From an uncultured Lachnospiraceae bacterium (lineage in GTDB: Bacteria; Bacillota; Clostridia; Lachnospirales; Lachnospiraceae), in contig CANRBX010000003.1 in NCBI GenBank assembly GCA_947628955.1, positions 58,679 to 122,678 of the forward strand: a DNA stretch of 64,000 nucleotides. The letters run 5' to 3'. The notes below the pieces were generated by a model that was not told the DNA's origin, did not search any database, and was given only the letters and a program-made list of their open reading frames with translations. Within the stretch, counting starts at the first letter, position 1. Every line of letters begins with the position of its first letter. Shown piece after piece: positions 44,537-60,265 of the stretch. The translations under genes were made by a program, and so were the position numbers.

Positions 44537-45526
44537 ATGGCAAGACTGGTAACACTGACGACCTGCCAGTGGGCGGATCTGGAGTTTGAAGAGATGTGCA
44601 GGCTCGCGAAGGAGATGGGCTATGACGGACTGGAGATCGCGTGCTGGGGCAACCACCTGGACGCAAAGAAGGCGGCGACCGATATGGAGTACGTAAAGTA
44701 CATAAAGGACACCCTCGCGAAGTACGGTCTGGTGAGCAAGGCCCTGGCAGCGCATGTGATCGGGCAGTGCGTGGGCGACTATGACGATCCCCGTCTGGAC
44801 AATTTTGCTCCGGCCGAGCTCGCCGGCAAAAAGGATGAGATCCGCGCCTGGGCGATCGAGACGATGAAGTATGTCGCTGTGGCGGCGAAAAATCTTGACA
44901 TTCCGGTGGTTACCGGTTTTGTGGGCTCCCCGATCTGGAAATATCTGTATTCCTTCCCGCAGACGACGGAGGAGATGATCGAGGCAGGCTTCCAGCAGAT
45001 CTATGATCTGTGGTGCCCGATCCTTGACGTGTTCCGCGAGAACGGGATCAAGTTTGCGCTGGAGGTGCATCCGGGCGAGATCGCGTTTGACTACTACTCG
45101 ACCGAGCGCCTGCTGAAGAAGTTTGAGGACCGCCCGGAGTTCGGCCTGAATTTCGATCCCAGCCATCTGATCTGGCAGGGCATTACCCCGCACGTATTCC
45201 TGAAGGATTTCATTGACAAGGTATATCATGTGCACATGAAGGACGCGGCTGTCACGCTGGACGGCAGATCCGGCCTGCTCGGCTCCCACATTGATTTCGG
45301 CGATCTCAGAAGAGGCTGGAATTTCCGCTCTCTCGGCCACGGCGATGTGAAGTTCGAGGAGATCATCCGCGTGCTGAACGCTTACGATTATCAGGGACCG
45401 CTCTCGGTAGAGTGGGAGGATTCCGGCATGGAGCGCGTCTATGGCGCGACCGAGGCGGCTGCCTTCGTGCGCAGAGTGGATTTCGCGCCGTCGGATGTGA
45501 AGTTTGACGCGGCGATCGCAAACTGA
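44537..45526 (+). CDS. Xylose-isomerase-like TIM-barrel protein (sugar phosphate isomerase/epimerase family)
   Basis: 329 residues; AAGGAGG precedes ATG 44537. The metal-binding set of the family is complete: Glu in FALEVHPGE, Asp in LNFDPSHL, His in VYHVHMKDA, and Glu in SVEWEDSG. LEIACWGNHLD is also typical of the branch that partners Gfo/Idh/MocA oxidoreductases, where 3-keto or 2-keto sugar intermediates are isomerised, epimerised or eliminated. DgpC/DfgA-type C-glycoside lyases belong to the same broad fold, but their small beta subunit is not found here. First gene of the promoter at 44454, followed by the oxidoreductase. Confidence 0.85.
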   Translation: MARLVTLTTCQWADLEFEEMCRLAKEMGYDGLEIACWGNHLDAKKAATDMEYVKYIKDTLAKYGLVSKALAAHVIGQCVGDYDDPRLDNFAPAELAGKKDEIRAWAIETMKYVAVAAKNLDIPVVTGFVGSPIWKYLYSFPQTTEEMIEAGFQQIYDLWCPILDVFRENGIKFALEVHPGEIAFDYYSTERLLKKFEDRPEFGLNFDPSHLIWQGITPHVFLKDFIDKVYHVHMKDAAVTLDGRSGLLGSHIDFGDLRRGWNFRSLGHGDVKFEEIIRVLNAYDYQGPLSVEWEDSGMERVYGATEAAAFVRRVDFAPSDVKFDAAIAN

Positions 45527-45669
45527 CAGAAGATCCGTTCTGTTTGCTGACATGCTTTCGCGCGGCAGGTGCAGCAATGCAGGGCAAAACAACAGAACGA
45601 GACAGATCGTGGGTTTTGAGTGACCGGTCATTTGGGGGCCAGTCAATGATTAAATCGGGAGGAACCATC

Positions 45670-46818
45670 ATGAGAACGAAATTAAATTACGGCCTGGTCG
45701 GCGGCGGCCTGGACGCATTCATCGGGACGGTGCACAGGATCGGCGCGGACTTTGACCGCATCGCGAAGCTGACTGCAGGGTGCTTCAGTTCGCGCGAAGA
45801 GAAGAACCGGGCGTGCCGGGAGTTTTATGAGCTGGATGAGAGCCGCGTCTACAGCTCCTACGAGGAGATGGCCGAGAAGGAAAGCAGACGGGAGGACGGC
45901 ATCGATTTTGTTACGATCGCGGCACCGAACAAGATCCATTATAAGGTGGCAAAGACGTTCCTGGAGCACGGGATCCATGTGTACTGCGAGAAACCGCTGT
46001 GCTTCGAGGTCGCCGAGGCGGAGGAACTGAAGAAGATCGCGGAGGAGAAGGGACTGCTCTTCGGGGTGAACTATTCCTATTCCGGAAACAACATGGTGAA
46101 GGAGGCACGGGAGCTGATCCTGAGCGGGCACATCGGAGAGGTGATCGACGTCAACGCGGAATATCTGCAGGAGTGGCTGATCGACGACATCGGCGCGGGC
46201 GATCAGACCATGAATAAGCTGTCTGTGTGGCGCAAGGATCCGGGCGTGGCCGGCATTTCCAACTGCGTCGGGGATATCGGCACTCATATTGAAAATACTG
46301 TGGCCTATATGACCGGACTGAAGGTGAAACGGGTGGCCGCAAAGCTTGACTATTTCGGACAGCCTCTGGATCTGAACGCGAATATCCTGGTCGAGTTTGA
46401 CAACGGCGCGCACGGCGTGTTCTGTTCCTCGCAGGTATGCGTGGGCCATATGAACGGCCTGGTTGTGCGGATTTTTGGTACGAAGGGTGCAATCGAGTGG
46501 CAGCAGGAGAACCCGAACATCCTGTATGTGACGCTGAAGGGACAAGCGACGCAGATCTATAACCGCGGCATGGCTTACGTCTCCGCGCGTTCCGCAGAGC
46601 TGAACCGCATCCCGTCCGGCCATCCGGAGGGACTGTTTGCGGCGTTTGCGAACATGTACAAAGTCTGGACTGGCGCCGTGCTCAAGAAGGTTAACGGCGA
46701 GGAACTTTCCGGATACGATTATGATTTCCCGTCCATAGACGCCGGGATCGAGGGCGTGAAATTTGTCCACGCCTGCGTGGAGAGCAGCCAAAAGGACGCG
46801 ACCTGGGTGGAGCTGTAA
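45670..46818 (+). CDS. Gfo/Idh/MocA family NAD(P)-dependent oxidoreductase
   Basis: 382 residues from ATG 45670 (GGGAGGAACC upstream). YGLVGGGLDAFIG is the Rossmann nucleotide loop, IHVYCEKPLCF the conserved E-K-P with the catalytic Lys, and NCVGDIGTHIEN supplies the Asp and His of the active site. In known pathways such enzymes oxidise a sugar or glycoside hydroxyl (commonly C3) as the first step of a keto-sugar route. It follows the TIM-barrel gene by 143 bases and likely shares its transcript. Confidence 0.88.
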   Translation: MRTKLNYGLVGGGLDAFIGTVHRIGADFDRIAKLTAGCFSSREEKNRACREFYELDESRVYSSYEEMAEKESRREDGIDFVTIAAPNKIHYKVAKTFLEHGIHVYCEKPLCFEVAEAEELKKIAEEKGLLFGVNYSYSGNNMVKEARELILSGHIGEVIDVNAEYLQEWLIDDIGAGDQTMNKLSVWRKDPGVAGISNCVGDIGTHIENTVAYMTGLKVKRVAAKLDYFGQPLDLNANILVEFDNGAHGVFCSSQVCVGHMNGLVVRIFGTKGAIEWQQENPNILYVTLKGQATQIYNRGMAYVSARSAELNRIPSGHPEGLFAAFANMYKVWTGAVLKKVNGEELSGYDYDFPSIDAGIEGVKFVHACVESSQKDATWVEL

Positions 46819-47210: not shown

Positions 47211-48332
47211 ATGGAAAATACAAAAAATGCGGACATCAGAGTGAATAATCGGAAAAGGGTGATCAATACCCTGTTCCGCAAGGGAGCAATGACCAAGCAG
47301 GATCTGGCCGGCCGGCTGGGGCTCAGCCTGCCGACGGTGACGCTGCTTTTAAAGGAGCTGAAGGAGAAAGGCCTGGTGGCGAACGGCGATGTGCTCAATT
47401 CCACCGGCGGGAGAAAGCCGGTGCTCCTTACGCCGGTTTACGATGTGAAGTATACGATGGGGTTTGAAATTTCCCTGCATGAGCTGCGGATGGTGATCCT
47501 CGACCTGGGCGGGAATGTCGCTGCGAAGGAACTGATCCCGCATGAGTTTGACGTCACGGAAAAATACTGGAAGATGATCAGCTCAGAAGTGGCGGATTTC
47601 ATTGCGCGCAATATCGCAGACAGATCGAAACTGATGATCGGAGGAATGGCCCTGCAGGTTCCGATGAAGCGCCGCAAAGATCTGTGGGAGGGAATCATCC
47701 GCGGGGAGAAAAAAAGCTTCACGTTTCAGACGCTGCAGTCCTGTTTTCCATGGCCGCTGACGGTTCATGAGAGTGTCAAGATGGCTGCGATCGCCCAGAT
47801 CTGGACCATGGATCAGCTGCCGGACAGCTTCCTCTATATGTCGATCGGCTCTCTTTTGAGCGGGGCAATCGTCCATGAGAAGCGGGTTCTGGGATATGAG
47901 GTGGCGAACGGCCGCTTTGACCGGGTTCTTCTCGGGGTGCATCGTCCGGGTGAGCGGATGGAGGATTACTGCACGATCGACGCCCTGTGCAGAAGATCAT
48001 CCTGCGCGACGGCGGAAGAGTTTTTTGCAAAGGCAGAAGCCGGGGATGAGACCTGCGGCCGGATATGGGAGGAAACGCTTGAGATCCTGACGGTCTTCCT
48101 CTACAACATGAACAATGTCTTCGGCTGGAAGGTGGTAGTGGGAGGCGCCCTGTCGCGCTATCTGGAACCGCTGGAGGACAGGATCAATGCGCGGCTGGAG
48201 GAGCTGGACAATGATCCGGGTGGATACGTCCCGTCCGTGATCGTCAGCGATTCGGGGGCGTATTCGGCGGCGATGGGAGCGGCGATGAGCGCGATCGACC
48301 GCTTCCTGGAATTCGGTTTCAGTGATATGTAG
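47211..48332 (+). CDS. ROK family transcriptional regulator without canonical zinc motif
   Basis: 373 residues; GAGGTGAGG precedes ATG 47211. The N-terminal winged helix is clear: MTKQDLAGRLGLSLPTVTLL followed by LKELKEKGLV. The rest is a sugar-kinase fold with FEISLHELRMVILDLGG and a degenerate SIGSLLSGAIV where active kinases have D-x-G-x-G-x-G. The usual C-x-C-G-x2-G-C zinc site is absent; the region reads YCTIDALCRRSSC. It is thus a regulator rather than a kinase, perhaps with altered ligand specificity. It lies inside the catabolic cluster and is the natural candidate to bind the shared promoter motif. Confidence 0.87.
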   Translation: MENTKNADIRVNNRKRVINTLFRKGAMTKQDLAGRLGLSLPTVTLLLKELKEKGLVANGDVLNSTGGRKPVLLTPVYDVKYTMGFEISLHELRMVILDLGGNVAAKELIPHEFDVTEKYWKMISSEVADFIARNIADRSKLMIGGMALQVPMKRRKDLWEGIIRGEKKSFTFQTLQSCFPWPLTVHESVKMAAIAQIWTMDQLPDSFLYMSIGSLLSGAIVHEKRVLGYEVANGRFDRVLLGVHRPGERMEDYCTIDALCRRSSCATAEEFFAKAEAGDETCGRIWEETLEILTVFLYNMNNVFGWKVVVGGALSRYLEPLEDRINARLEELDNDPGGYVPSVIVSDSGAYSAAMGAAMSAIDRFLEFGFSDM

Positions 48333-48420: not shown

Positions 48421-48969
48421 ATGAACGAAGTAATAGACCTGATCAAAAACCGCTGTTCGATCCGCAGCTTTACGGATGAACCGCTGACGCAGGACGAGCT
48501 GCAGGCGCTGGTTGACGCCGGACTCGCGGCTCCGAGCGGGGCCAACCTGCAGAACTGGCACTTCAGCTTTGTGACGGACAAGGGGATCGTAAACGAGATT
48601 GAGACGTACCTTGTGGACCGTGTCATGGCGGGCGACAATGAGTTCATCAAGAATCTGATCGAGAGCCGCAACAGGAAGATCTTTTTCAACGCAGCTGTTG
48701 TTGTGTTCATCTCCACGAAGGGCGGAGAGAGCCTGGTGGACGCGGGGATCGCGATCGAGAACATCGTGCTGGCGGCGCAGTCCATGGGCCTGGGAAGCTG
48801 TGTGCTCGGCGGCTGCAGAGATGCGTTCAACCTGGAGCGCGGCGCGTATTTCAAGAAGCTCGTGCAGATGCCGGAGGGCTATGAATTTGCGGTTGCGGCC
48901 GCGATCGGACACCCGGCGATGGGCGGGACGCCGCACGAGCGCCTGCCGGAGAAGGTAACCATATTGTAA
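48421..48969 (+). CDS. Nitroreductase family FMN protein
   Basis: 182 residues from ATG 48421 (GGAGAAAGGAG upstream). IKNRCSIRSFTDEPLT and AAPSGANLQNWHF are the FMN-binding blocks at the N terminus; GIAIENIVLAAQSMGLGSCVLGGC and AAAIGHP are the matching C-terminal part. A small FMN-dependent NAD(P)H oxidoreductase acting on a quinone, nitro or enone-type compound. Its position between the regulator and the arabinofuranosidase suggests use on an unsaturated or aromatic part of the substrate, but this is inference. Confidence 0.88.
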   Translation: MNEVIDLIKNRCSIRSFTDEPLTQDELQALVDAGLAAPSGANLQNWHFSFVTDKGIVNEIETYLVDRVMAGDNEFIKNLIESRNRKIFFNAAVVVFISTKGGESLVDAGIAIENIVLAAQSMGLGSCVLGGCRDAFNLERGAYFKKLVQMPEGYEFAVAAAIGHPAMGGTPHERLPEKVTIL

Positions 48970-49105: not shown

Positions 49106-50614
49106 ATGCACACTGGCGTTTTTATTCACCCGGATCGGGTTCTGGGCAGGCGCAGCATGATGCTGTACGGCCATTTTATTGAGCATTTTCACAGACAGAT
49201 CTATGGCGGAGTCTTCGACCCGTCCAGCCCTTTTGCGGATGAGGACGGCCTGCGCACCGATGTGCTGGACGCGATGCGGAAAATCCGGGTCCCGGTGCTG
49301 CGCTGGCCGGGCGGATGCTTTGTTTCCTCCTACAACTGGAAGAAAGCGGTGGGGCGGGATCGCACTCCGGTATTTGACAAAGCGTGGCGCGTTGAGGATC
49401 CGAATACGTTCGGGACGGATGAGTTTGTGGCTATGTGCCGTAAGATCGGCTGCGAGCCGTATATCTGCACGAATGCGGGGACGGGCACGCCGGAGGAGAT
49501 GAGCGACTGGGTGGAGTACTGCAACCTGGAGAGCGAAGGAGAGTTTGCCAGATGGCGCATCGCCAACGGGCACCCGCAGGCGCATAAGGTGAGATTCTGG
49601 AGCATCGGAAATGAGAATTACGGAAGCTGGGAGCTGGGCGCAAAGACGGCGGGCGAATGGGGACGTCTGGTGCGGGAGTCCGCGAAGCTGATGAAGCATG
49701 TGGATCCTGACGTGGAGCTGTCCGCCGCTGCGCTGACCGATATTGAATGGAACGTGGACCTGCTTTCGAAGTGCGGGCAGTACCTGGACTGGATATCGAT
49801 CCACAAATACTGGAACCTGATGGCGGAAAACAATGACTTCGCTGATTATGAGCAGTCCATGGCATACACGAACGATCTGGATACGGATATCCGGAAGGTG
49901 CGAGGGCTTCTGACGGCGATGGGGCTTGAAAAACGCATCAGGATCGCGTACGACGAGTGGAACCTGCGCGGCTGGCATCATCCGAACGTGCACAGCATCC
50001 GCCAGGGCCGCACAAAGGAAGAATACCTCCTTCCGCGCGACAAGAATGATATCAACAGCGATTATACGATGGCGGACGCGGTGTTTACCGCATGCTTCCT
50101 CAATACGCTCAACCGCAACTGTGATATCATCGGCATGGCGAACTTTGCGCCTGTCGTCAATACGCGCGGCTGTATTTTCACCCACAGGGACGGGCTGGTC
50201 CTGCGCAGCACCTACCATATTTTTGACCTGTACGTGAATTACCTCGGGGATGAGATCCTGGACAGCTGGATGGAGAACGGCGCGGCCATGCATGTGGTCG
50301 GAAAGGCCGGAAACCATGAGGACGTGTCTGTGTTGGATGTGTTGGCGACGCGTCGCCGCGGAACCAATGACCTGGCGGTTGCTGCCGTAAACAAGCATCC
50401 GTCGGAAAAACAGGTGCTGGCGCTTACAGCAGAGGGAAATTACACGGCCGGTTCTTACCGCGTAGTCACCGTGAACGGGCCGGAGACCGGCTCGTACAAT
50501 GATATCGGGACGGAGCAGGTGAAGCTGACCGAGGGAGAGTGGCTTCCTGTCACGGGCAGGACGCTCGAGGTGACGCTGGAGCCGCACTCCGCCAACGTCA
50601 TACAGCTGTCCTGA
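49106..50614 (+). CDS. Alpha-L-arabinofuranosidase, glycoside hydrolase family 51
   Basis: 502 residues; GAAGGAGGGG precedes ATG 49106. FIEHFHRQIYGGVFDP near the N terminus, VLRWPGGCFVSSYNWK, WSIGNENYGSWE (acid/base Glu170) and IAYDEWNLRGW (nucleophile Glu284) are all GH51 marks. The C-terminal jelly-roll end is present (LTAEGNYTAGSYRV and LEPHSANVIQL). No signal peptide, so it is intracellular and works on short, already imported arabinosides or arabinosyl glycosides. It ties the cluster to plant-derived substrates. A terminator region follows. Confidence 0.92.
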   Translation: MHTGVFIHPDRVLGRRSMMLYGHFIEHFHRQIYGGVFDPSSPFADEDGLRTDVLDAMRKIRVPVLRWPGGCFVSSYNWKKAVGRDRTPVFDKAWRVEDPNTFGTDEFVAMCRKIGCEPYICTNAGTGTPEEMSDWVEYCNLESEGEFARWRIANGHPQAHKVRFWSIGNENYGSWELGAKTAGEWGRLVRESAKLMKHVDPDVELSAAALTDIEWNVDLLSKCGQYLDWISIHKYWNLMAENNDFADYEQSMAYTNDLDTDIRKVRGLLTAMGLEKRIRIAYDEWNLRGWHHPNVHSIRQGRTKEEYLLPRDKNDINSDYTMADAVFTACFLNTLNRNCDIIGMANFAPVVNTRGCIFTHRDGLVLRSTYHIFDLYVNYLGDEILDSWMENGAAMHVVGKAGNHEDVSVLDVLATRRRGTNDLAVAAVNKHPSEKQVLALTAEGNYTAGSYRVVTVNGPETGSYNDIGTEQVKLTEGEWLPVTGRTLEVTLEPHSANVIQLS

Positions 50615-50912: not shown

Positions 50913-51959
50913 CTAGTCCCAGGGATGAAGCACGACCTTGATGGCCTCGCCGGTTCTTGTCAGCCGGATGCCCTCGTTGATCTGGTCGAGCGGCAGAACG
51001 TGAGTGATGAATTTCTCCGTCGGGAAGGACGGGGAGATCGCCAGCTGGAAGGCCCGCTTGGACTGGCTGTAGGATGCTCCGAAGTGGCCCTTGATCCAGA
51101 TATTGTTGTAGTGGATCAGGTTGCAGTCAAGCTCGGTCATGGAGCCCTTCGGGACGCCGCCGAAGAAGACGACCAGGCCGCCCTTTTTGACCATGTGGAT
51201 GCTCTGCGTCTGGGTGGCGTTCACCGGAGTCGCGGAGATGACCTTGTCCGCGCCTTTGCCGTTCGTGAGGCGCCTGACGGCCTCGATCGGATCCTCGGCA
51301 GAGCTGTCAATGGTGATGTCTACGCCGAACTGGGTCGCCATCTGCAGGCGCTTCGCATTAATATCGATCATGATGACCTTCTGTGCGCCGCGGATCTTCG
51401 CGAGCTGTGCCATAAAGCAGCCGATCGGGCCCGCACCGATGATCACGAGCGTGTCCGGATAGCCGACCTGCACATTTTCCAGGCAGGCGAACACGGAGGT
51501 CAGCGGTTCGCCGAGGCTGGCCGCGTCAAAGGTGACATCGTCCGGGATGTAGTAAATGCCGCCGCGGCGGATCTTCTCACCGCTCACTGCAACATACTGC
51601 GCGAAGCCGCCGGTGCCGGCGAGTTTTGCGACTGCGGTATTGGAGCAGTTTTCGCTGTGCCCGCTGATGCATTCGTCACACTCCATGCAGTAGGTGCCCG
51701 GGAAAAGGAAGAGCCGGTCGCCTACCTGATATTTTGTCTCATCTTCTCCGATCTCATCGACAAATCCGACGATCTCATGTCCGTAAATAAACGGATAATC
51801 GCCTTTTCTCGAATCGGTCGTAAGGTTGCGGATGTCAGAACCGCAGAGGCCGACCGACATGATCTTCAGGATCAGGCCGTCCTTCGGACACTCAGGTTTC
51901 TGCGTTTCCTCCACGCGGATATCATTTGGCCCGTACATTAATGCAGCTTTCATTTTCAT
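50913..51959 (-). CDS. Zinc-dependent medium-chain alcohol/polyol dehydrogenase
   Basis: 348 residues on the minus strand, GAAAGGAG upstream of ATG 51959. VGLCGSDIRN (catalytic zinc Cys), YGHEIVGFV (His-Glu), the four-Cys structural zinc lobe YCMECDECISGHSENC, GEPLTSVFACLE and VIIGAGPIGCFMAQLA (NAD loop) are all present. The sequence fits the sorbitol/threonine dehydrogenase branch. It is the only gene of the cluster on the minus strand and shares the 389-base regulatory region with the divergent TIM-barrel operon, so both can be controlled from there. Confidence 0.9.
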   Translation of the reverse strand: MKMKAALMYGPNDIRVEETQKPECPKDGLILKIMSVGLCGSDIRNLTTDSRKGDYPFIYGHEIVGFVDEIGEDETKYQVGDRLFLFPGTYCMECDECISGHSENCSNTAVAKLAGTGGFAQYVAVSGEKIRRGGIYYIPDDVTFDAASLGEPLTSVFACLENVQVGYPDTLVIIGAGPIGCFMAQLAKIRGAQKVIMIDINAKRLQMATQFGVDITIDSSAEDPIEAVRRLTNGKGADKVISATPVNATQTQSIHMVKKGGLVVFFGGVPKGSMTELDCNLIHYNNIWIKGHFGASYSQSKRAFQLAISPSFPTEKFITHVLPLDQINEGIRLTRTGEAIKVVLHPWD

Positions 51960-52239: not shown

Positions 52240-52286
52240 AATAGATTTATAAAAGTATTGACAAACAGAAAAGAAAATAGTATAGT
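52240..52286 (+). promoter_or_regulatory. Promoter with shared operator motif for the TIM-barrel operon
   Basis: TTGACA (52258-52263), 17 bases, TATAGT (52281-52286). The 20-base motif at 52240-52259 differs at 3 of 20 positions from the inverted repeat at 44436-44455 and overlaps the -35 box in the same way. A further TTTTATAAAA palindrome flanked by ATGC and GCAT lies just downstream (52302-52326). Confidence 0.75.
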
Positions 52287-52348: not shown

Positions 52349-53341
52349 ATGAAGGCTGTAGCAGGATTTGGTATTGTCAATGCCGACACGAGCGGTCCGG
52401 GAGCTTTTCTGCGGGCTGCAAAATGGTATTGGGATGAACTTACGGATATGTTTTCAGCGGCCGGTTTTACTTCCGTCATGATCCCGATGGTTCCGAACAC
52501 CGAGAATGTGTCAAGGAACGGGGCCCCGATCTGCACCGCTTCGATCCGGACACGCTTCGGCTCCCCGCGGGGCTATCTGGATTACCTGAATGACAAGGGG
52601 ATCGAGAATGTGGAGGCGATCGGGATCTCCGCGCAGGCTCAGTTCAACAGCCTGTTTGAGACCGGACTGCCGATGGAGCAGTTTTTTGACGAGTTTTACC
52701 GCCATGCCGAGGATACGGCGGATGCCCTGACGGAGCTTCACGGCAGCACGCTTCTGGTTTCCCCGACGCCGGGCATCGGCTTTCTGGACCAGGCATTTGC
52801 GGGCGACGAGGCAAAGAAACAGAAGTTTCTGGCGGACGCGGCGGAGTGCATGAACCGGATCGGCGAAAAGTGCCGCGCGAACGGGCTTAATCTCGCGATC
52901 CGCAACGAGTACTGGACGCTGATGAGGGGCACGGCGATCGATGCGTTTATGGAGATGGTGGACAGGAATCTGGTAACCTACGCACCGGATCCGGCGCACC
53001 TGTGTATCGCGGGCGCGGATTATGCGGCTTACTATGAGAAGTATGCCGCTCAGGCGAAGACAGTCTGCTTCACGGACACGAAATTTGTCGATGAGCTGGG
53101 CGCCTATAAGACGATCTCACCGGAATACCCGCAGGACGGGCAGCATCAGAGGGTTTACTGCGACCTCGGATTTGGAGAGATTGATTTCGACAGGCTTTAT
53201 GCGGTGCTGAAAAAGGCCGGATTTGACGGGCCGGTGCTTCTGGATTCCAAATATTCTCTGGATATCCCGAAGGGGATCCTGAGAATGCGGACCTTCTGGA
53301 ACAGACTGGAGAAGAACTTTGCGGCAAAGGAGGTTCAGTGA
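52349..53341 (+). CDS. TIM-barrel sugar isomerase/epimerase-like protein 2
   Basis: 330 residues. The barrel pattern of the AP-endonuclease-2/xylose-isomerase-like family is present: AIRNEYW with a Glu, YAPDPAHL with an Asp, but the usual His-x-K-D is FTDTKFVD and the last Glu is an Asp in LLDSKYS. The metal site is therefore altered or different from that of the 44537 protein. It may act on a different intermediate, or bind without catalysis. The stop overlaps the next ATG, so translation is coupled. Confidence 0.75.
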   Translation: MKAVAGFGIVNADTSGPGAFLRAAKWYWDELTDMFSAAGFTSVMIPMVPNTENVSRNGAPICTASIRTRFGSPRGYLDYLNDKGIENVEAIGISAQAQFNSLFETGLPMEQFFDEFYRHAEDTADALTELHGSTLLVSPTPGIGFLDQAFAGDEAKKQKFLADAAECMNRIGEKCRANGLNLAIRNEYWTLMRGTAIDAFMEMVDRNLVTYAPDPAHLCIAGADYAAYYEKYAAQAKTVCFTDTKFVDELGAYKTISPEYPQDGQHQRVYCDLGFGEIDFDRLYAVLKKAGFDGPVLLDSKYSLDIPKGILRMRTFWNRLEKNFAAKEVQ

Positions 53342-54276
53342 TGGAAGACAGAAATCTCAATTATTCGTACATGACGAATCTCTGGGGGAATATCAATTAC
53401 AAACAGATCAACAATTTCGACGAATGGTACATGGGCGATTTTGGATCTGCCTACTATTACCAGGACTGGGATAAGATCCTCCGCTACTTTGCGGGCGCAG
53501 GCTTTAAAGGGATCGAGCTCATGGTATTTTCCGTGCCGAGCATCAAAAACGCGTTCGGCTCGATGACGAATTTCAGGGAATTTGCCCGGGAGAGAGGGAT
53601 TGAGCGTATTACCGGCATGTTTTCCCACCATGTGGGCTCGCAGGACAAGAGGAACCATCCGGGCATCTACGCGTACGAGCAGCAGGCGATCGACGCGCTG
53701 GCTGAGTGCGGGGGCATCAATCTGATCGTGCAGCCCGCGGGGCAATATTACGGAACCGGCCCGCTCGACGAAGAAGGTCTGAAGAATGTAGCTGAGTGCA
53801 TGAATACCGTGGGCCGCATGTGCGCGGAGAAGGGACTGGCGGTCTCGATCCACAATGAGTTCTGGTGCGCGGTGAACAAGTACGACCACGAAAGATTCCT
53901 CGAGATGACCGACCCCCGCTACGTCTACTACTGCCTTGACACGGCTCAGGTGGCGATCATGGGCAAGGACATCCTGAACTTTTACGACACCTACCATGAC
54001 AGAGTCCAGTATTTCCACATCAAGGATACGACCTACATCAATGCGCCGGACGAAAAGCGCTTCAGCGCGGGCGCAGAATTCGACGAAAAGGGCGGACGCT
54101 GGTTCTGGGAGCCTGGCGGAGGACTGCTGGATTTCCCGGGCCTCTGGAAATTGATGAAAAAGCATGGTCATAAGGGCTGGATCGGCATCGAGTCCGACGG
54201 GACGCCGGAGCCTCTGGCGACGATTCTGCTCACGAAGAACTACATAGATACGGTCCTTGACCCGATATACAAATAA
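53341..54276 (+). CDS. TIM-barrel sugar isomerase/epimerase-like protein 3
   Basis: 311 residues from ATG 53341 (AAAGGAGG upstream, start overlapping the preceding stop). The metal ligands are visible: Glu in SIHNEFW, Asp in YCLDTAQ, His in QYFHIKDT and Glu in GIESDGT. It is distinct in sequence from the two other barrel proteins of the cluster. Such triplets suggest successive isomerisation or epimerisation of related keto sugars, or a hetero-oligomer of proteins 2 and 3. Confidence 0.82.
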   Translation: MEDRNLNYSYMTNLWGNINYKQINNFDEWYMGDFGSAYYYQDWDKILRYFAGAGFKGIELMVFSVPSIKNAFGSMTNFREFARERGIERITGMFSHHVGSQDKRNHPGIYAYEQQAIDALAECGGINLIVQPAGQYYGTGPLDEEGLKNVAECMNTVGRMCAEKGLAVSIHNEFWCAVNKYDHERFLEMTDPRYVYYCLDTAQVAIMGKDILNFYDTYHDRVQYFHIKDTTYINAPDEKRFSAGAEFDEKGGRWFWEPGGGLLDFPGLWKLMKKHGHKGWIGIESDGTPEPLATILLTKNYIDTVLDPIYK

Positions 54277-54295: not shown

Positions 54296-54524
54296 ACCAG
54301 GCGGCAAATTTATTTGACAGACTGGTTTCGCATGAGAGACGCTAAATGTATGAGCAAAAAAGCTGCGCGAACGGAAGTGAGCGAAGCGATTTGCGAATAC
54401 ATGTAAGATTGCGGGAGTGCGAAGCACGGAGCAATCTTGGGGCTTTATTTGTCGGGAGACCAGGCGGCAAATTTATTTGACGGACTGGTTCCGCATGAGA
54501 GGCGCTAAACATATAAGCAAAAAA
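54296..54524. repeat. 66-bp direct repeat (two copies) in the leader of the VOC gene
   Basis: Copy 1 54296-54361 and copy 2 54459-54524 share ACCAGGCGGCAAATTTATTT, an ACTGGTT block and GCATGAGAG, with few changes. Between them lies a hairpin (AAGATTGC to GCAATCTT, 54405-54437). AAATAAAGCCC at 54271 and GGGGCTTTATTT at 54439 are also inverted repeats of each other. Confidence 0.7.
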
Positions 54525-54558
54525 ATAAAAATTATATTCATATCAGGAGGATACCACC

Positions 54559-55047
54559 ATGGATACACAATTCGCAAAATTTTTACAGATCGGCATCATT
54601 GTTGAGAACGTCGAGGAAACCATTAAACATTACGAGGAATATGGCGTCGGACCGTGGAGGGTCAGCCCGCTTGACTCTGCGGAGTTCCCGGACTTCACGA
54701 TGAACGGCAAGAAGGAACGCCTGCAGACGATCATGGCGTTCTGTGACTGCTGGGGCTTTGAGCTCGAGCTGATCCAGCCGATCAGCGACAGCCCGTACAA
54801 GACCTGGCTTGACGAGCACGGCCCGGGCATGCATCACATTGCGCTGATCACGAGAGATGAGTTTGGCAAGGTGATCGAGCAGCACAAACAGCTCACTGGC
54901 AGAGATCCGTGGCTGTGGTGCAAGGATCCGGTGATCGGCATGGAGTTCGCGTATCTGGATCTGCACAAGGAGCTCGGATTGTATCTGGAGGTTTACAACG
55001 AGGATAAGAAGGGCGGCCTTGACGCCAATTTCAAACTGCCGGAATGA
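54559..55047 (+). CDS. VOC/glyoxalase family protein
   Basis: 162 residues; AGGAGG precedes ATG 54559. FLQIGIIVENVEETIKHYE opens the first beta-alpha-beta-beta-beta unit, FELELIQP gives a metal Glu, GMHHIALIT a His, and LYLEVYNE the final Glu. The first ligand position has Gln instead of His. It resembles methylmalonyl-CoA epimerase-like members, which act on keto- or CoA-linked carbon acids by proton transfer. Placement before an aldo/keto reductase and thiolase suggests work on a keto intermediate. Confidence 0.8.
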   Translation: MDTQFAKFLQIGIIVENVEETIKHYEEYGVGPWRVSPLDSAEFPDFTMNGKKERLQTIMAFCDCWGFELELIQPISDSPYKTWLDEHGPGMHHIALITRDEFGKVIEQHKQLTGRDPWLWCKDPVIGMEFAYLDLHKELGLYLEVYNEDKKGGLDANFKLPE

Positions 55048-55242: not shown

Positions 55243-56208
55243 ATGGAATACGTAAAATTTGAAGGCATTGACAAGAAGATCAGCAAGTTTTTTATGGGAA
55301 CCTTCGGGATGTTCCCGGACAACAAGGAAAAGCATTTTCAGACGCTGGATGCGGCGTACGATCTGGGGATCACAGCGATCGATACGGCGCGCGCCTATGA
55401 CTCGGAGCCGACGGTGGGAGAGTGGATTGAGTCGCGCGGCGTCCGTGAGAACATCGTGCTTCTCTCCAAGGGCGCACATCCGTCGGACTACCGCGAGAGA
55501 GTGACGCCGTATGACATAGACTCCGACCTGGCGGAGACACTCGCCGAGCTGCGCACGGATTACCTGGACATCTATCTTCTGCACAGGGACAACACAGCGC
55601 TTCCGGTCGGACCGATCGTGGAGAAACTGAACGAGCATCAGGCAGCAGGCAGGATTAAGATCTTCGGAGGTTCCAACTGGACGCATCAGCGCCTGGAGGA
55701 GGCCAACGAGTACGCATATGCGCACAACCTCTCGCCGATGACCGTCTCTTCGCCGAATTTCAGCCTGGCGGAGCAGGTGAAGAATCCGTTCGCTCCGGGC
55801 TGCGTCACGATCGCCGGCAACAAGAACGCGGAGGCACAGGAGTGGTATACGAAGAACCAGATGCCGGTGCTCGCCTACTCTTCGCTGGCGAGGGGCCTGT
55901 TCTCCGGGAGGATCACGAGGGAGCTGCTCGCGAATGATCCGGAGAAGATCGATATGTTCTGCCGCATCGGTTACTGCTATGAGGAAAACTTCGTCCGTCT
56001 CGACCGCTGCAAAGAGATCGCCCAGGAGAAGGGCTGCTCAATCCCGCAGGTGGCGATGGCCTATGTGCTTGACAGCCCGCTGAACGCGTTCCCGATCATC
56101 GGCGCGGCCAACCGCGCAGAGATCGAATCTTCTCTGGGTGCACTGAATGTGAAGCTCACGCCGCAGGAGGTACTCTATCTTGAGCTGAAAGCAGACACGA
56201 GGAAGTAA
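55243..56208 (+). CDS. Aldo/keto reductase
   Basis: 321 residues from ATG 55243 (GACAGGAGG upstream); the frame is open 160 bases further but that part is repetitive leader DNA. TAIDTARAYDSE holds Asp and Tyr, IVLLSKGAH the Lys, DIYLLHRDN the His: the complete AKR tetrad. IKIFGGSNWTHQRL and VAMAYVLDSPLNAFPIIGA are also family blocks. NAD(P)H-linked reduction or oxidation of a sugar-derived carbonyl is expected. Its last codons (ELKADTRK and stop) are the seed of the tandem repeat array that follows. Confidence 0.88.
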   Translation: MEYVKFEGIDKKISKFFMGTFGMFPDNKEKHFQTLDAAYDLGITAIDTARAYDSEPTVGEWIESRGVRENIVLLSKGAHPSDYRERVTPYDIDSDLAETLAELRTDYLDIYLLHRDNTALPVGPIVEKLNEHQAAGRIKIFGGSNWTHQRLEEANEYAYAHNLSPMTVSSPNFSLAEQVKNPFAPGCVTIAGNKNAEAQEWYTKNQMPVLAYSSLARGLFSGRITRELLANDPEKIDMFCRIGYCYEENFVRLDRCKEIAQEKGCSIPQVAMAYVLDSPLNAFPIIGAANRAEIESSLGALNVKLTPQEVLYLELKADTRK

Positions 56209-56449
56209 ATTGGGCCGAAAGCACACGCGAGGAAGTAAACTTGGCCGAAAGCAGATGCGAAAAAGTAAATTGGACCGAAAGCAGATGTGAGGAAATAAAT
56301 TGGGCCGAAAGCAGATGTGAGGAAGTAAACTTGGCCGAAAGCAGATGCGAAAAAGTAAATTGGACCGAGAGCAGATGTGAGGAAGTAATTAGGCCGAAAA
56401 CAGACACGAGGAAGTAAATTGAGCTGAAAGCAGATGTGAGAAAACAAAA
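56182..56449 (+). repeat. ~30-bp tandem repeat array starting in the aldo/keto reductase 3' end
   Basis: Nine units of about 30 bases, consensus CCGAAAGCAGATGTGAGGAA then GTAAATTGGG, with no spacers. The first unit is the last eight codons, the stop and the next bases of the aldo/keto reductase gene. Units 2-4 and 5-7 agree pairwise, showing a later duplication with a period of ~90 bases. It lies between that gene and the thiolase. Confidence 0.9.
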
Positions 56450-56568: not shown

Positions 56569-57852
56569 ATGGTACCGGGTAAAGTAGGGAAATACAGCCG
56601 AAGCGTATCGATCATCGGGATCGGCGCGACGCCGTTTGGCGATACCGGACAGGATCCGGAGCTGGAGGGGATCACAGAAGGGGAATTTTTCGGGGCGGCG
56701 GCCCTGATGGCCATGGAGGACGCAGGACTGGAGCCGAGAGACATTGACTTTTTCTATCACGGTTCGGCGAATCCGAAATTCTTTAACAATGCCGCGACGC
56801 CGAACATGCAGGTCGCGGAGTGGTTCGGCATGAGGGGAAAAGGATCGGTTCACCATTCCGAGGCGTGCTGCACCGGCTACGTCGCGCTGCAGCAGGCGGT
56901 GAACGACGTGGCGTCCGGAGCGCATGACATCGTTCTCACGGGCTGTGTGGAGATGTCCTGCGGGCTTCCGCTTCCCGGAAAGCCGGCGCATCTGAGACGG
57001 CCGCTCACGACCGAGGATATGATCCCGGATCTGGAGGCAATCATGGACCGTGCTTATACGCGTGCGCTCGGCAGCGGCCACATCGGACAGGACGACTGGA
57101 TCGATCTCTACCGGACGCAGTATGGGCTGACCGACGAGCAGGTGGACGAGGTGCTCAACACCATGTCGTACCACGGAAGAAGGGCCGCGGCGCTCAATCC
57201 GCTGGCGATGTTCCGCACCCTGTTTGAAGAGCTGGCGAAGGAACACGGTTTTGCCGGTCCGATGGAGTACCTGCGCTCCGCATATAATCCGAAGACGACC
57301 CAGTACCTGCGCGTCACGGGCAACGCGGCGAGCGCGGACGGAGCCGCCTGCGCGATCGTATGCCCGACCGGGATGGCGCACCAGTTTAAGCAGAAAGCGG
57401 TGGAGATCCTCGGCATTGGTTCCTCCTGCCTGGAGCTCATGAGGCCGCACAATGAGATGGAGATCACAAAGGAGGCCGGCCGCCAGGCGTACGAGGTGAC
57501 GGGGCTGAAGCCGGAGGATATCGATCTTCTGCTGGTCAACGACTTTGTGCTTCCCTCACAGCTGCTCGCGGCGGAAGAGCTCGGATATCTCCCGAGAGGC
57601 GAGGGCTGGAAATGGGTGTTGGAGGGCCGCACGGCGTTTGACGGCGACCGCCCGATCAACCCGCACGGCGGGCGCACCTCCTACGGGCACGCTTACGGCG
57701 CGTCCGGCATGGCGGATATCTATGAGGCGGTGCTCCAGCTGCGCGGGCAGGCAGGGGCGCACCAGGTGAAGAACAGCCCGAAGACCGCAATGCTGCGCGG
57801 ATTCGGCGGCGGACAGAACTGCTGTATTCCTGTCCTGAGAACTGTAGACTGA
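56569..57852 (+). CDS. Thiolase family protein (SCP2/acetyl-CoA acetyltransferase type) that pairs with DUF35
   Basis: 427 residues; AAAGGAG precedes ATG 56569. HHSEACCTGYVALQQAV holds the nucleophile Cys100 of the thiolase fold, INPHGGRTSYGHAYGASG the catalytic His, and FGGGQNCC the C-terminal Cys region. LRVTGNAASADGAAC is the usual middle block. This branch lacks the loop of biosynthetic thiolases and works with a DUF35 OB-fold partner, which follows here by 41 bases. Known pairs include archaeal acetoacetyl-CoA thiolase/HMG-CoA synthase complexes and the PhlABC C-acyltransferase. C-C bond cleavage or acyl transfer is expected. A thiolase in a sugar cluster is unusual. Confidence 0.85.
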   Translation: MVPGKVGKYSRSVSIIGIGATPFGDTGQDPELEGITEGEFFGAAALMAMEDAGLEPRDIDFFYHGSANPKFFNNAATPNMQVAEWFGMRGKGSVHHSEACCTGYVALQQAVNDVASGAHDIVLTGCVEMSCGLPLPGKPAHLRRPLTTEDMIPDLEAIMDRAYTRALGSGHIGQDDWIDLYRTQYGLTDEQVDEVLNTMSYHGRRAAALNPLAMFRTLFEELAKEHGFAGPMEYLRSAYNPKTTQYLRVTGNAASADGAACAIVCPTGMAHQFKQKAVEILGIGSSCLELMRPHNEMEITKEAGRQAYEVTGLKPEDIDLLLVNDFVLPSQLLAAEELGYLPRGEGWKWVLEGRTAFDGDRPINPHGGRTSYGHAYGASGMADIYEAVLQLRGQAGAHQVKNSPKTAMLRGFGGGQNCCIPVLRTVD

Positions 57853-57893: not shown

Positions 57894-58328
57894 ATGAAGA
57901 TTGAACGAGTGGTAAAAAAGTTTTACGATGGCCTGGCGGAGCATAAGATTTATGCACGCAGATGCAAAGAGTGCGGCGCGATCGAGTATCCGCCGAGATA
58001 TGCCTGCAACACCTGCGGCTACCACGAGACGGAGTGGGTGGAGCTCTCCGGCAGGGGAAAACTGCACAGCATCATCCTGCCCGCGACGCTGAACGCGGAT
58101 CCGTGGAACGCAAAGATCGGCCCGTACTGCTACGGGATCGTGGAGGCGGAGGAAGGCGTAAAATTCAACGCGACGGTATTTGGCGTCAGCCGCAAAAAAG
58201 CGAAGGAGTGGAGAAACCAGCTCCCGCTTCCGGTACACGCGCTGTTCGCCGAAAAGGACGGGTTTACGACCCTGTTCTGGCAGGTGGACGAGGACGCGAT
58301 GCAGGAAGCTGCTCCGGACAGAAAGTAA
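57894..58328 (+). CDS. DUF35 zinc-ribbon/OB-fold protein (thiolase partner)
   Basis: 144 residues. ATG 57894 follows GAGGAGG; an ATG at 57873 precedes that site and is less likely. A rubredoxin-like zinc knuckle RRCKECGAIEYPPRYACNTC is followed by an OB-fold (SGRGKLHSIILPA, YGIVEAEEGVKFNATVFG). Family knowledge: DUF35 proteins bind the CoA pantetheine tail and form a channelled complex with SCP2-type thiolases. The tight spacing with the thiolase gene matches that role. Confidence 0.88.
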   Translation: MKIERVVKKFYDGLAEHKIYARRCKECGAIEYPPRYACNTCGYHETEWVELSGRGKLHSIILPATLNADPWNAKIGPYCYGIVEAEEGVKFNATVFGVSRKKAKEWRNQLPLPVHALFAEKDGFTTLFWQVDEDAMQEAAPDRK

Positions 58329-58375
58329 AACACTGAAGAGCAGCCATTTTTCGGGCAGCTCATAATATTAAGGTG

Positions 58376-58428
58376 AAACGCCTGTTTTCGGCGGCTGAGA
58401 GTGTCAGCTGTATCGGAGACGGGCGTTT
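58376..58428 (+). terminator. Possible terminator after the DUF35 gene
   Basis: AAACGCC (58376-58382) pairs with GGCGTTT (58422-58428), followed by a T-rich TTGTTTGATG. The loop is long and itself structured. Weak but in the correct place. Confidence 0.4.
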
Positions 58429-58714
58429 TGTTTGATGGACGTTTTGTCTTATATGGGGACCTTCTTACGGCTTCAGCCGCAAGTGCCCCGGTCTGGTCTG
58501 AACGGTAACCAGAATTTTGCCTCTTAGAAGCGGAAAAACCGGTTTTGAGGAAAACCGCGGAATCTGGTATGCTGAATACAGAGAGAATAGTGGAAGTTCC
58601 GCTGCCGGCTGCGGGGCGGACGGAAGCGCAGGTCCGGAACGTGCAAAGAGGAAAAGGCAAACCGCGAGCGGTGCATGGACGGAAATCAGAACAAAATCAG
58701 GAGGCAGAATAGTT
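58429..58714. other. Leader of the FGGY kinase gene
   Basis: About 285 bases without a convincing gene. The kinase frame is open through it, but the normal FGGY start is at 58715 behind CAGGAGG. No clear promoter hexamers were found. Confidence 0.4.
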
Positions 58715-60265
58715 ATGGTGGAAAATTACTTACTGGGGATGGACTGCGGCACGACGAATATCAAGGCGATCATTCTCGCGGAGGACGGGACGGTGGCCGC
58801 GGAGGCGACGCGCCCGAGCCGGTTCATCTCCCCGGGACCGAATATGCAGGAGCAGGATGCAAATGACTGGTGGAGGCAGACGGTGGAGATCTTTCAGTCT
58901 CTGTCGGAGCAGGTGGGGCCGGAGATCGTGAAACGGATCCGCGGGATCTCCATCAGCTCCCATACGGTAACCCTGCTTCCGGTGGACGCGGACGGCAGAC
59001 CGCTCAGAAATGCGATGACCTATCAGGACAGCCGCTCGGTGGGAGAGCTGCAGTATATCCTTGATACGATCGGCTATGACCGTTTTGTGAGGATCGTGGG
59101 AGGGCAGCCGTCGGTTGCATTCCTGCCGAACAAGATCCTGTGGTTTAAGAAAAACGAGCCCGAGCTGTTTGCAAAGACAAAATATTTTCTGCAGGCAAGC
59201 TCCTATATCAATTTCCGTCTGACCGGGGTGATGACCTCGGATCTCGACCAGGCGACGCGCACGCAGTGTCTGGACTGCGCAGAGCTGGTGTGGTCAGACG
59301 AGATCGGGAAAGTGATCGGCGTTGATCTGAATAAGATGCTTCCGCCGCTGCGCCTGGTGGAAGAGATCATCGGCACTGTCACGGAGGAGGCTGCGCGCGA
59401 GACCGGACTGATCTCCGGGATCCCGGTGATCGCAGGCTGCAGCGACGCGCTGGCGGCCATGTACGCGACTGGCATGAGTGCGCTCGGAGACGCGGGAGAA
59501 TCCTCCGGAACCACATCGCTGGTGTTTATCGGCAGTGACAAAAAAAGCGCGCCGGATGTCCCGGTGGTGACAAGGCCCTGCCCGCTTCCCGGCGTGCCGT
59601 GGCTCTTTGACGCGCCGATCCAGTCGAGCGGCGCGGCCCTCAAATGGTTTATCGAGACGATGGCGGGAGAAGAGCGCGCCTATGCCGAGGCCCACGGGAT
59701 GAATATCTACACGTATCTGAATGAACTGGCGCTCGAATCGAAGCCGGGCGCCGGCGGCCTGTTCTTCCTCCCGTACCTTCTGGGCGAGCGGGCTCCGCTG
59801 TGGAACGACTATGCGCGCGGCATGTTTATCGGCCTGAACATGAACATGAAGCGCAGCGACCTTGCGCGCTCCGTATTTGAGGGAACCGCCTATGCGCTGC
59901 GCCACGTGATGGAGACTGTGAAGGAGTCCGGCGCGCAGCCGAAGCTTCTGCGCCTCTGCGGCGGCGGGGCGAAAAGCCGTACCTGGTCGATGATCAAGGC
60001 GTCGGTGCTGAACATGCCGGTGCACGTCCTTGACGAGAAATCCGGCGACGTTCCGGTCGGCGACGCGCTGATTGTGGGCAATAAGGTGGGTGTGTTCCCC
60101 AACCTCAGGGCAGCGGCGGAGCGCATCGTGAAGGTGCGCGAGGTCATCGAGCCGAACCCGGAGTGGGCGGAGGCGTACGATAAGCTGTATCCGTACTATG
60201 TAGAGATGTATCGGCACCTCGACCAGGATCTGAAAAAGCTGCAGAAGACCGTCGCGGAGCTGTAA
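58715..60265 (+). CDS. FGGY family carbohydrate kinase (xylulokinase-like)
   Basis: 516 residues. LLGMDCGTTNIKAIILAEDG is the N-terminal phosphate loop of FGGY kinases; ISSHTVTLLPVD, MTYQDSRSVGEL, VIAGCSDALAAMYATG (with catalytic Asp), ESSGTTSLVFIG and RLCGGGAKSRTWSMI (ATP site) follow. It phosphorylates a pentulose, pentitol or similar product, the usual exit of such a pathway into central metabolism. With arabinofuranosidase upstream a pentose-derived substrate is plausible. It closes the catabolic cluster. Confidence 0.9.
   Translation: MVENYLLGMDCGTTNIKAIILAEDGTVAAEATRPSRFISPGPNMQEQDANDWWRQTVEIFQSLSEQVGPEIVKRIRGISISSHTVTLLPVDADGRPLRNAMTYQDSRSVGELQYILDTIGYDRFVRIVGGQPSVAFLPNKILWFKKNEPELFAKTKYFLQASSYINFRLTGVMTSDLDQATRTQCLDCAELVWSDEIGKVIGVDLNKMLPPLRLVEEIIGTVTEEAARETGLISGIPVIAGCSDALAAMYATGMSALGDAGESSGTTSLVFIGSDKKSAPDVPVVTRPCPLPGVPWLFDAPIQSSGAALKWFIETMAGEERAYAEAHGMNIYTYLNELALESKPGAGGLFFLPYLLGERAPLWNDYARGMFIGLNMNMKRSDLARSVFEGTAYALRHVMETVKESGAQPKLLRLCGGGAKSRTWSMIKASVLNMPVHVLDEKSGDVPVGDALIVGNKVGVFPNLRAAAERIVKVREVIEPNPEWAEAYDKLYPYYVEMYRHLDQDLKKLQKTVAEL

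What the first reader, a model, noticed from the sequence alone, without database searches (positions are those of the whole stretch)
44537..60265. Catabolic regulon that joins keto-sugar enzymes with a thiolase/DUF35 pair
Three TIM-barrel isomerase-like proteins, a Gfo/Idh/MocA oxidoreductase, a zinc dehydrogenase, an aldo/keto reductase, a VOC protein, a GH51 arabinofuranosidase and an FGGY kinase form a typical oxidised-sugar route. The thiolase and its DUF35 partner do not belong to any such route I know. Thiolase/DUF35 complexes make or break C-C bonds next to carbonyls (HMG-CoA synthesis, PhlABC-type C-acylation). I propose that the pathway removes sugar from, or cleaves a carbon-carbon bond in, a plant glycoside or C-acylated compound, with arabinose released by GH51. 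It is the best candidate here for an undescribed system.
Basis: inference. Interest (0 to 1): 0.75.

Follow-up and report, generated by a model that had tools for sequence, protein, structure and literature searches.

The report
Gut thiolase module with acyl carrier
In this Lachnospiraceae bacterium a thiolase and its DUF35 partner sit in a conserved cluster of predicted keto-sugar genes, and in related bacteria the same pair usually comes with its own acyl carrier protein gene and often with genes predicted to make ATP, so the pair is likely to split a carbon-carbon bond in a plant-derived compound and would save the energy as ATP.

Summary
The genes are there, with corrections. The conserved unit is TIM2-TIM3-VOC-AKR-thiolase-DUF35, usually with TIM1-Gfo; it recurs (60-95% identity) in 11 other loci, among them Catenibacillus scindens. 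GH51, zinc dehydrogenase (minus strand), FGGY kinase and this ROK gene are in none of the 11, the nitroreductase in one. So the thiolase/DUF35 pair is core; the arabinose story is not supported. The new result is the pair's wider family: outside the window clade, 48 of 54 thiolase rows have an acyl carrier protein (ACP) within 5 kb (27) or fused to DUF35 (21), 37 a phosphotransacylase, 26 a butyrate kinase, 14 a phosphopantetheinyl transferase. In 20 genomes ACP lies within 3 kb of 29 of 37 thiolases (0.44 expected). Cys100 and His374 are invariant. Best reading (inferred): Cys100 takes an acyl group off a beta-dicarbonyl by retro-Claisen cleavage and hands it to ACP or CoA; phosphotransacylase and kinase make ATP. 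The window's clade has mostly lost the adjacent ACP, but the three whole genomes with this cluster encode ACP and phosphotransacylase elsewhere. Substrate unknown. Ten searches of an open-licence library found no description.

The parts
44442..44459 (+). operator-like element overlapping the -35 box (TTGACA) of the TIM1 promoter; -10-like TATGAT 17 nt downstream; inverted repeat AATACTTT..AAAGTATT starts at 44436
   Evidence: sequence shows it, function inferred
44537..45526 (+). TIM1, likely 2-hydroxy-3-keto-glucal hydratase-type protein
   Evidence: PF01261; 8ro4 169 bits, 2zds 357 bits; behind DUF35 in 6 of 8 window-type loci with enough sequence
45670..46818 (+). Gfo/Idh/MocA oxidoreductase, partner of TIM1
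   Evidence: next to TIM1 in the same 6 loci
47211..48332 (+). ROK-type transcription regulator (local; relatives have a different ROK gene inside the operon)
48421..48969 (+). nitroreductase-family protein (accessory; 79% relative only in L012)
49106..50614 (+). GH51-type arabinofuranosidase (accessory, in none of the 11 window-type relatives)
50913..51959 (-). zinc alcohol dehydrogenase-like protein (accessory, opposite strand)
52246..52263 (+). second copy of the operator-like element, overlapping the -35 box of the TIM2 promoter; -10-like TATAGT 17 nt downstream
   Evidence: function inferred
52349..53341 (+). TIM2, core; paralogue of TIM3 (27% identity), its gene overlaps TIM3
   Evidence: model mean pLDDT 92.8, best PDB match 8ro4
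53338..54276 (+). TIM3, core; IolE-like TIM barrel
54559..55047 (+). VOC-fold protein, core
   Evidence: PF13669; 81-93% identity in 9 relatives
55243..56208 (+). aldo/keto reductase, core
   Evidence: 85-95% identity in 10 relatives
56569..57852 (+). SCP2-type thiolase, core; invariant Cys100 and His374, Asn324 at the HDxF position
57894..58328 (+). DUF35 (zinc ribbon + OB fold) partner of the thiolase, core; in most more distant relatives an acyl carrier protein lies nearby or is fused to it
58715..60265 (+). FGGY carbohydrate kinase (accessory; 61-62% relatives only in L072 and L077, which are not window-type)

Best explanation
The thiolase and DUF35 protein are a conserved part of a predicted keto-sugar catabolic operon and likely work as a retro-Claisen acyltransferase, in which Cys100 would attack one carbonyl of a beta-dicarbonyl intermediate, break the neighbouring C-C bond and pass the acyl group to a carrier thiol. 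Shown: the pair stays with TIM2-TIM3-VOC-AKR in the window-type loci (one locus, L012, lacks VOC and AKR); its family elsewhere mostly comes with a dedicated ACP, near DUF35 or fused to it, and often with phosphotransacylase, butyrate kinase and phosphopantetheinyl transferase; Cys100 and His374 are invariant and Asn324 nearly so. Inferred: the carrier is the ACP's phosphopantetheine (or CoA); the phosphotransacylase makes an acyl phosphate from it and the kinase makes ATP, so energy that hydrolytic diketone cleavage would waste is conserved. Inferred for this window: Gfo and the TIM barrels oxidise and dehydrate or hydrate a sugar of a plant glycoside to the dicarbonyl, AKR recycles NAD(P)H by reducing the aldehyde or ketone fragment, and ACP, phosphotransacylase and kinase are supplied from other loci of the genome or replaced by CoA. 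The exact substrate is not known.
For: Order and identity of the core in 11 other loci. ACP within 3 kb (start to start) of 29 of 37 thiolase loci, 0.44 expected; phosphotransacylase within 3 kb of 22 of 37, 0.29 expected. Outside the window clade, of 54 thiolase rows, within 5 kb: DUF35 52, ACP 48 (27 separate, 21 fused), phosphotransacylase 37, butyrate kinase 26, phosphopantetheinyl transferase 14. Pfam sees zinc ribbon and PP-binding in one ORF in the 3 fusions tested; the ACP Ser is invariant in 23 sequences; the one kinase tested passes the NCBI butyrate kinase cut-off. ACP matches of 75 bits or more (26) fall only in thiolase-bearing genomes: 18 of 20 with, 0 of 377 without, best there 68.6 bits. 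Own genome: C110 carries DUF35 (cut) - ACP, then a phosphotransacylase; C101 carries butyrate kinase - thiolase. Cys100 and His374 100%, Asn324 99% of 184 sequences, all three invariant in a 39-row alignment. Fold: 7yvy, benzoylsuccinyl-CoA thiolase, archaeal acetoacetyl-CoA thiolase, PhlC.
Against: The window's own clade mostly lacks the ACP beside the pair: of 12 rows it is intact only in L004, shortened without the Ser region in C. scindens (L005), and not found in the other 10, three of which are cut near DUF35 by a contig end. No second catalytic Cys, so a thiolysis step by CoA is not obvious. No enzyme was assayed, and the direction of phosphotransacylase and kinase is assumed. The one phosphotransacylase tested is nearer to Pta than to Ptb and below the NCBIfam cut-offs. 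The ACP model was built from ACPs that partly come from these same genomes, so its hits there are partly by construction. Six of 54 outside rows have no ACP nearby (L014, L015, L016, L080, L087, L104; L080 is cut by its contig end). No gene makes the needed dicarbonyl by proven chemistry.
Confidence: 0.5

Rival explanations
1. The pair runs in the synthetic direction: kinase and phosphotransacylase activate a short acid, the acyl group is loaded on ACP or CoA, and the thiolase/DUF35 complex C-acylates a small molecule, as PhlABC does.
For: PhlC and the MucABC and C-formylation complexes are among the fold matches; ACP and phosphopantetheinyl transferase are typical of synthesis (recalled); phosphotransacylase and kinase are reversible (recalled).
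Against: Neighbours of relatives look catabolic: MFS transporters, PucR-type regulators, flavoenzymes nearest to BaiCD and vinylphenol reductase (both below the NCBI cut-offs), CoM-methyltransferase-like proteins, [FeFe] hydrogenase; the window copy sits with TIM barrels, Gfo and AKR; no PhlA-like subunit in the window cluster.
Confidence: 0.17
2. It is a CoA-dependent beta-ketothiolase for a small keto acid made from the sugar, and the ACP link of the relatives has no bearing on the window's enzyme.
For: The window clade has mostly lost the adjacent ACP; nearest folds are CoA thiolases.
Against: No CoA ligase or CoA transferase among the 13 genes; the clade is nested among ACP-bearing sisters, and ACP plus phosphotransacylase are present elsewhere in the three whole genomes tested.
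Confidence: 0.18
3. It is a retro-aldolase of the Ltp2/Sal kind that uses no acyl-cysteine.
For: Ltp2-ChsH2(DUF35) and Sal-Shy(DUF35) are homologous complexes.
Against: The catalytic Tyr of the YD(H/C)(F/Y) motif reported for Ltp2 and Sal (PMC12329534, passages read) is replaced: the window reads V-N-D-F, while Cys100 and His374 are kept.
Confidence: 0.08
4. Ordinary mixed sugar-utilisation island in which the thiolase pair is a passenger.
For: Accessory genes differ from genome to genome; serine recombinases lie immediately upstream.
Against: Six-gene core conserved across genera; in the window clade DUF35 follows the thiolase in every row not cut by a contig end.
Confidence: 0.05

Closest known systems
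Thiolase/DUF35 complexes: benzoylsuccinyl-CoA thiolase BbsAB, archaeal acetoacetyl-CoA thiolase/HMG-CoA synthase, PhlABC, Ltp2-ChsH2 and Sal-Shy aldolases
   Same: SCP2-type thiolase fold with a DUF35 partner; nucleophilic Cys and the His of GHP/GHA kept
   Different: HD(A/C)F reads NDF; most relatives carry a dedicated ACP near or fused to DUF35, often with phosphotransacylase and butyrate kinase; no HMG-CoA synthase-like third subunit in the window cluster
Non-hydrolytic 3-keto-glycoside pathway (A. tumefaciens AtOGE/AtHYD; gut 3-keto-glucoside lyases)
   Same: TIM1 is homologous to AtHYD (8ro4); TIM2's model matches AtHYD first and also the Bacteroides and Alistipes 3-keto-glucoside lyases; a Gfo enzyme is present. 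Pathway read in passages of PMC10628242 and PMC13273386
   Different: That pathway returns the plain sugar in four steps; no thiolase, DUF35, VOC or AKR is named in the passages read
Gut C-glycoside deglycosylation (DgpABC, DfgABE)
   Same: C. scindens, a C-deglycosylating gut bacterium, has the window-type cluster; Gfo and TIM-barrel enzymes in both
   Different: No beta subunit (PF19906) in the window cluster; the Catenibacillus genome paper has no occurrence of 'thiolase' in its main text (PMC11170127, passages read)
Anaerobic phloroglucinol pathway (PGR, DPGC, TfD, TAL)
   Same: Retro-Claisen C-C cleavage in a polyphenol fermentation with ATP through phosphotransacylase and kinase; its cluster also has a thiolase homologue (PMC10470551, passages read)
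   Different: There ring cleavage is by a cyclohydrolase, TAL is a zinc beta-keto acid cleavage enzyme and the thiolase splits acetoacetyl-CoA; here a thiolase/DUF35 set with ACP in relatives
Citrate lyase and malonate decarboxylase (catabolic enzymes with a dedicated ACP; recalled)
   Same: A dedicated carrier protein in C-C cleaving catabolism
   Different: Their ACPs carry a CoA-derived prosthetic group and work without a thiolase (recalled); here PF00550 ACPs with PF01648 phosphopantetheinyl transferases nearby

Membership tests
Thiolase/DUF35 heteromer | adjacent SCP2-type thiolase and zinc-ribbon/OB-fold DUF35 genes | tested here: met
   DUF35 beside 52 of 54 outside thiolase rows and 10 of 12 window-clade rows, the other two cut by a contig end
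Thiolase/DUF35 heteromer | nucleophilic Cys and His of the GHP/GHA motif | tested here: met
   C100 and H374 in 100% of 184 sequences
Thiolase/DUF35 heteromer | HD(A/C)F motif and a second catalytic Cys | tested here: not met
   V-N-D-F at 323-326, aligned to HDAF/HDCF; among Cys columns only C100 (100%) and C101 (93%) reach 93% conservation
Ltp2/Sal steroid aldolase | catalytic Tyr in YD(H/C)(F/Y) | tested here: not met
   Val at that position (motif from PMC12329534)
PhlABC C-acyltransferase | third, PhlA-type subunit in the cluster | tested here: not met
   no such gene among the window cluster genes scanned
C-glycoside deglycosidase (Dgp/Dfg) | beta subunit PF19906 with an alpha TIM barrel | tested here: not met
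   none in the window region 39001-64000 with a model built here; four matches elsewhere in the genome, three over the Pfam cut-off
3-keto-glycoside non-hydrolytic pathway | 2-hydroxy-3-keto-glucal hydratase | tested here: met
   homology only: TIM1 169 bits to 8ro4
3-keto-glycoside non-hydrolytic pathway | glycoside 3-dehydrogenase or 3-keto-sugar reductase | tested here: inconclusive
   Gfo matches 3v5n and 3dty (named only 'oxidoreductase') best, DgpA at 34 bits only
ACP-coupled thiolase module (this report) | ACP near or fused to DUF35 | tested here: not met
   absent at 58329-58720 of the window in three frames; present in 48 of 54 outside rows
ACP-coupled thiolase module (this report) | ACP next to phosphotransacylase somewhere in the same genome | tested here: met
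   G000 C110, G036 C82, G067 C1: 3 of 3 whole genomes with the window-type cluster
Anaerobic phloroglucinol pathway | DPGC cyclohydrolase and TAL genes in the cluster | tested here: not met
   neither family among the cluster genes scanned

The most novel reading that the evidence does not exclude
Gut anaerobes run a polyketide-synthase-like machine backwards: a thiolase/DUF35/acyl-carrier-protein complex breaks beta-dicarbonyls from plant glycosides and polyphenols, holds the acyl piece on a dedicated ACP, and a phosphotransacylase and butyrate kinase cash it in as ATP. It would be a third kind of ACP-dependent catabolism besides citrate lyase and malonate decarboxylase, and the window carries a keto-sugar branch of it in which, for example, 3-keto-glucose would be split to glycolaldehyde and an erythronyl thioester.
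Probability: 0.35. Interest if true: 0.9.

Novelty: new variant of a known kind. Interest (0 to 1): 0.7.

Why it matters
Carrier proteins belong mainly to synthesis in textbooks; a gut system that uses one to cleave C-C bonds and make ATP would explain how strict anaerobes live on dicarbonyls from plant glycosides and phenolics, and would give a genomic marker for that trait in the groups where I saw it (20 of 397 Lachnospiraceae genomes sampled, and loci in Erysipelotrichaceae, Oscillospiraceae and Collinsella). It also tells an enzymologist which proteins to mix: thiolase, DUF35 and ACP, the last two already fused in nature.

Tried and rejected
Rejected: GH51/arabinose as part of the pathway. 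Rejected: the window ACP at 23748-23990 as the partner; it has an ordinary DSL motif and lies among what look like exopolysaccharide genes. Rejected: an ACP remnant in the window behind DUF35 (none found). Weakened: TIM2 as a dead partner of TIM3. It lacks the His of the H-x-K-D motif, but the homologue consensus keeps a Glu where the window has Asp and other ligand positions. Weak: a special link between the thiolase family and C-glycoside deglycosidase; PF19906-type genes lie within 12 kb of only 3 of 56 rows that lack the window-type VOC (the Hespellia case L074/L075, about 10 kb, is outside that count because its thiolase is cut by my locus boundary), and such genes are numerous in C. scindens (14 matches), so chance is not excluded. 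A phylum-wide sample gave the thiolase in no genome but the window's own (1 of 398), against 20 of 397 in the family sample. Operators shared by more of the gaps: none above shuffled controls (up to 2 gaps share a word, shuffles reach 3); the 20-base palindrome is not conserved upstream of TIM2 in relatives. Papers: ten searches, six of them aimed at thiolase, DUF35, ACP or kinase together, in an open-licence PMC library, gave no description of a thiolase-DUF35-ACP module in the titles and abstract starts listed; subscription papers are not held, so 'undescribed' is limited to that. The 2024 Angewandte paper on AtHYD was seen only as a reference entry.

Counts: 66 thiolase rows were used in the tree out of 69 ORFs in the thiolase cluster; two loci that repeat another locus (L105, L106) and ORFs of 370 aa or less were dropped. 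C. scindens counts as ACP 'separate' although its ACP lacks the Ser region. L033, a fragment with DUF35 and the end of a window-type thiolase from the same assembly as L011, is not counted among the 11. The gene caller is crude and in places chose an antisense frame; on C110 it did so over the phosphotransacylase, which rests. In one search only PTA/PTB matches of 100 bits or more (65 of 85) were used.
Full report
What is in the window. The finding's genes are real. In order: TIM1, Gfo, ROK regulator, nitroreductase, GH51, zinc dehydrogenase on the minus strand, TIM2, TIM3, VOC, AKR, thiolase, DUF35, FGGY kinase. Three serine recombinase genes end at 44382, just upstream, and a genome of the same genus in the sample lacks the thiolase (G152). 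The host is of the family Lachnospiraceae: handle G067, labelled 'same family', has the thiolase at the very contig coordinates of Catenibacillus scindens (L005).

What belongs together. A scan of genome contigs with the thiolase gave 32 loci. Eleven of them (L002-L012) are window-type. TIM2 is found in 10 of 11, TIM3 in 10, VOC in 9, AKR in 10 and DUF35 in 9; the gaps are contig ends (L008, L010, L011) except in L012, which lacks VOC and AKR. Identities run from 60% to 95%. TIM1-Gfo follow DUF35 in 6 of the 8 loci with enough sequence (absent in L002 and L004). At E <= 1e-25, GH51, zinc dehydrogenase, FGGY kinase and the window's ROK gene are in 0 of 11, the nitroreductase in 1 (L012). A different ROK-type gene stands between AKR and the thiolase in 5 of 11 (L002, L003, L005, L007, L012). 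So the conserved unit is TIM2-TIM3-VOC-AKR-thiolase-DUF35, usually with TIM1-Gfo, and the thiolase pair is part of it. In the window the unit is split, but both halves start behind a promoter-like sequence with the same 18-base element on the -35 box; in relatives that element is not clearly conserved.

The wider family. I fetched 35 further stretches around thiolase relatives in the 20 of 397 family genomes that have them at E <= 1e-60 and clustered the neighbouring genes. Outside the window's clade the thiolase sits with DUF35 and mostly with an acyl carrier protein, often with a phosphotransacylase, a butyrate kinase and a phosphopantetheinyl transferase. Of 54 thiolase rows outside the clade, within 5 kb: DUF35 52, ACP 48 (27 as a separate ORF, 21 on the DUF35 ORF), phosphotransacylase 37, butyrate kinase 26, phosphopantetheinyl transferase 14 (models built here). 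Pfam sees the DUF35 zinc ribbon and one or two PP-binding domains in one ORF in the three fusions tested (L101, L025, L021). The ACP Ser is invariant in 23 separate ACPs. The tree puts the fusions in two separate groups (8 and 13 rows) and the window's clade (12 rows, support 100/100) among sisters that have the ACP.

Chance. In the 20 genomes (61.2 Mb) there are 101 PP-binding matches and 65 PTA/PTB matches of 100 bits or more. ACP lies within 3 kb of 29 of 37 thiolases, where 0.44 are expected; phosphotransacylase of 22 of 37, where 0.29 are expected. With a model of the module's ACP over 397 family genomes, the 26 matches of 75 bits or more all fall in thiolase-bearing genomes (18 of 20), and none of the other 377 reaches 69 bits. 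The model was trained on ACPs that partly come from these genomes, so the absence elsewhere is the informative half.

The window's own case. No ACP stands behind its DUF35. L004 keeps one; in C. scindens the gene is shortened and lacks the Ser region; the other 10 rows of the clade, the window included, show none beside the pair, three of them (L008, L010, L011) being cut close to DUF35. All three whole genomes in hand with the window-type cluster nevertheless encode the module's ACP next to a phosphotransacylase elsewhere: G000 contig C110, G036 contig C82 (an ACP-phosphotransacylase-kinase set without a thiolase beside it, some 36 kb from the cluster) and G067 contig C1. The window's genome also has a second thiolase on C101, beside a butyrate kinase and a C-glycoside deglycosidase pair.

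Chemistry. Cys100 and His374 are invariant in 184 sequences and Asn324 is present in 99%. The alignment with solved thiolases puts them at the nucleophile, the GHP/GHA histidine and the HDxF position. No second conserved Cys is seen apart from C101 (93%). The model (mean pLDDT 82.8) matches the Pyrococcus thiolase 7yvy, benzoylsuccinyl-CoA thiolase, the archaeal acetoacetyl-CoA thiolase, PhlC and Ltp2. The Tyr that marks the Ltp2/Sal aldolases is absent. From this I infer acyl transfer through Cys100 rather than retro-aldol chemistry. The kinase and the phosphotransacylase argue that the acyl group ends as acyl phosphate and ATP. The kinase tested passes the NCBI butyrate kinase cut-off; the phosphotransacylase tested is nearer to Pta than Ptb and below the cut-offs. 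For the sugar side, TIM1 is homologous to the 2-hydroxy-3-keto-glucal hydratase 8ro4, and TIM2, a paralogue of TIM3 with 119 relatives in the protein search, models closest to the same protein. The neighbours of other family members (flavoenzymes nearest to BaiCD and vinylphenol reductase, CoM-methyltransferase-like proteins, deglycosidases) point to plant phenolics and glycosides. The substrate itself is a guess.

Literature. C. scindens cleaves C-glycosides; the paper on its genome does not use the word thiolase in its main text (PMC11170127, passages). The keto-glycoside route is described in PMC10628242 and PMC13273386 (passages), steroid aldolases with DUF35 in PMC12329534 (passages), and retro-Claisen phloroglucinol fermentation in PMC10470551 (passages). 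Ten searches in that open-licence library listed no paper on an ACP-coupled thiolase/DUF35 module.

Verdict. Its likely meaning is wider than a plant arabinoside route: it belongs to what looks like a fermentative, carrier-protein-coupled C-C cleaving system.

Noticed in passing
56180-56444: Tandem array of a 30-base unit (8.7 copies) fills most of the gap between AKR and the thiolase; no promoter-like site of the shared type there.
   Followed up: partly
54277-54558: The gap before VOC holds two near-copies of a stretch of about 60 bases flanking another sequence, like a small inserted element (read by eye).
   Followed up: no
40797-44382: Three serine recombinase genes in a row directly upstream of TIM1, preceded by a predicted AAA-ATPase gene; G+C is 41% at 1-37000 and 51-61% in the stretches measured after 39000.
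   Followed up: no
23748-23990: A small acyl carrier protein gene with an ordinary DSL motif between genes that look like exopolysaccharide or capsule biosynthesis; not of the thiolase-module type.
   Followed up: partly
61486-62853: VTC-domain gene followed by a DUF4956 membrane protein gene, as in polyphosphate or CotH-like clusters (recalled).
   Followed up: no
L108 (own contig C3:45000-58678), 4142-10664: Just upstream of the window: carboxyltransferase-like, malonyl-transferase-like, ACP, ketoacyl synthase III-like and two SDR-like genes in a row; looks like a small polyketide or fatty-acid-like cluster (read by eye).
   Followed up: no
L094, L095, L101, L102: Thiolase/DUF35-ACP loci with [FeFe] hydrogenase, a fumarate-reductase-like flavoprotein and a small ferredoxin in tandem; a possible redox branch of the same module.
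   Followed up: partly
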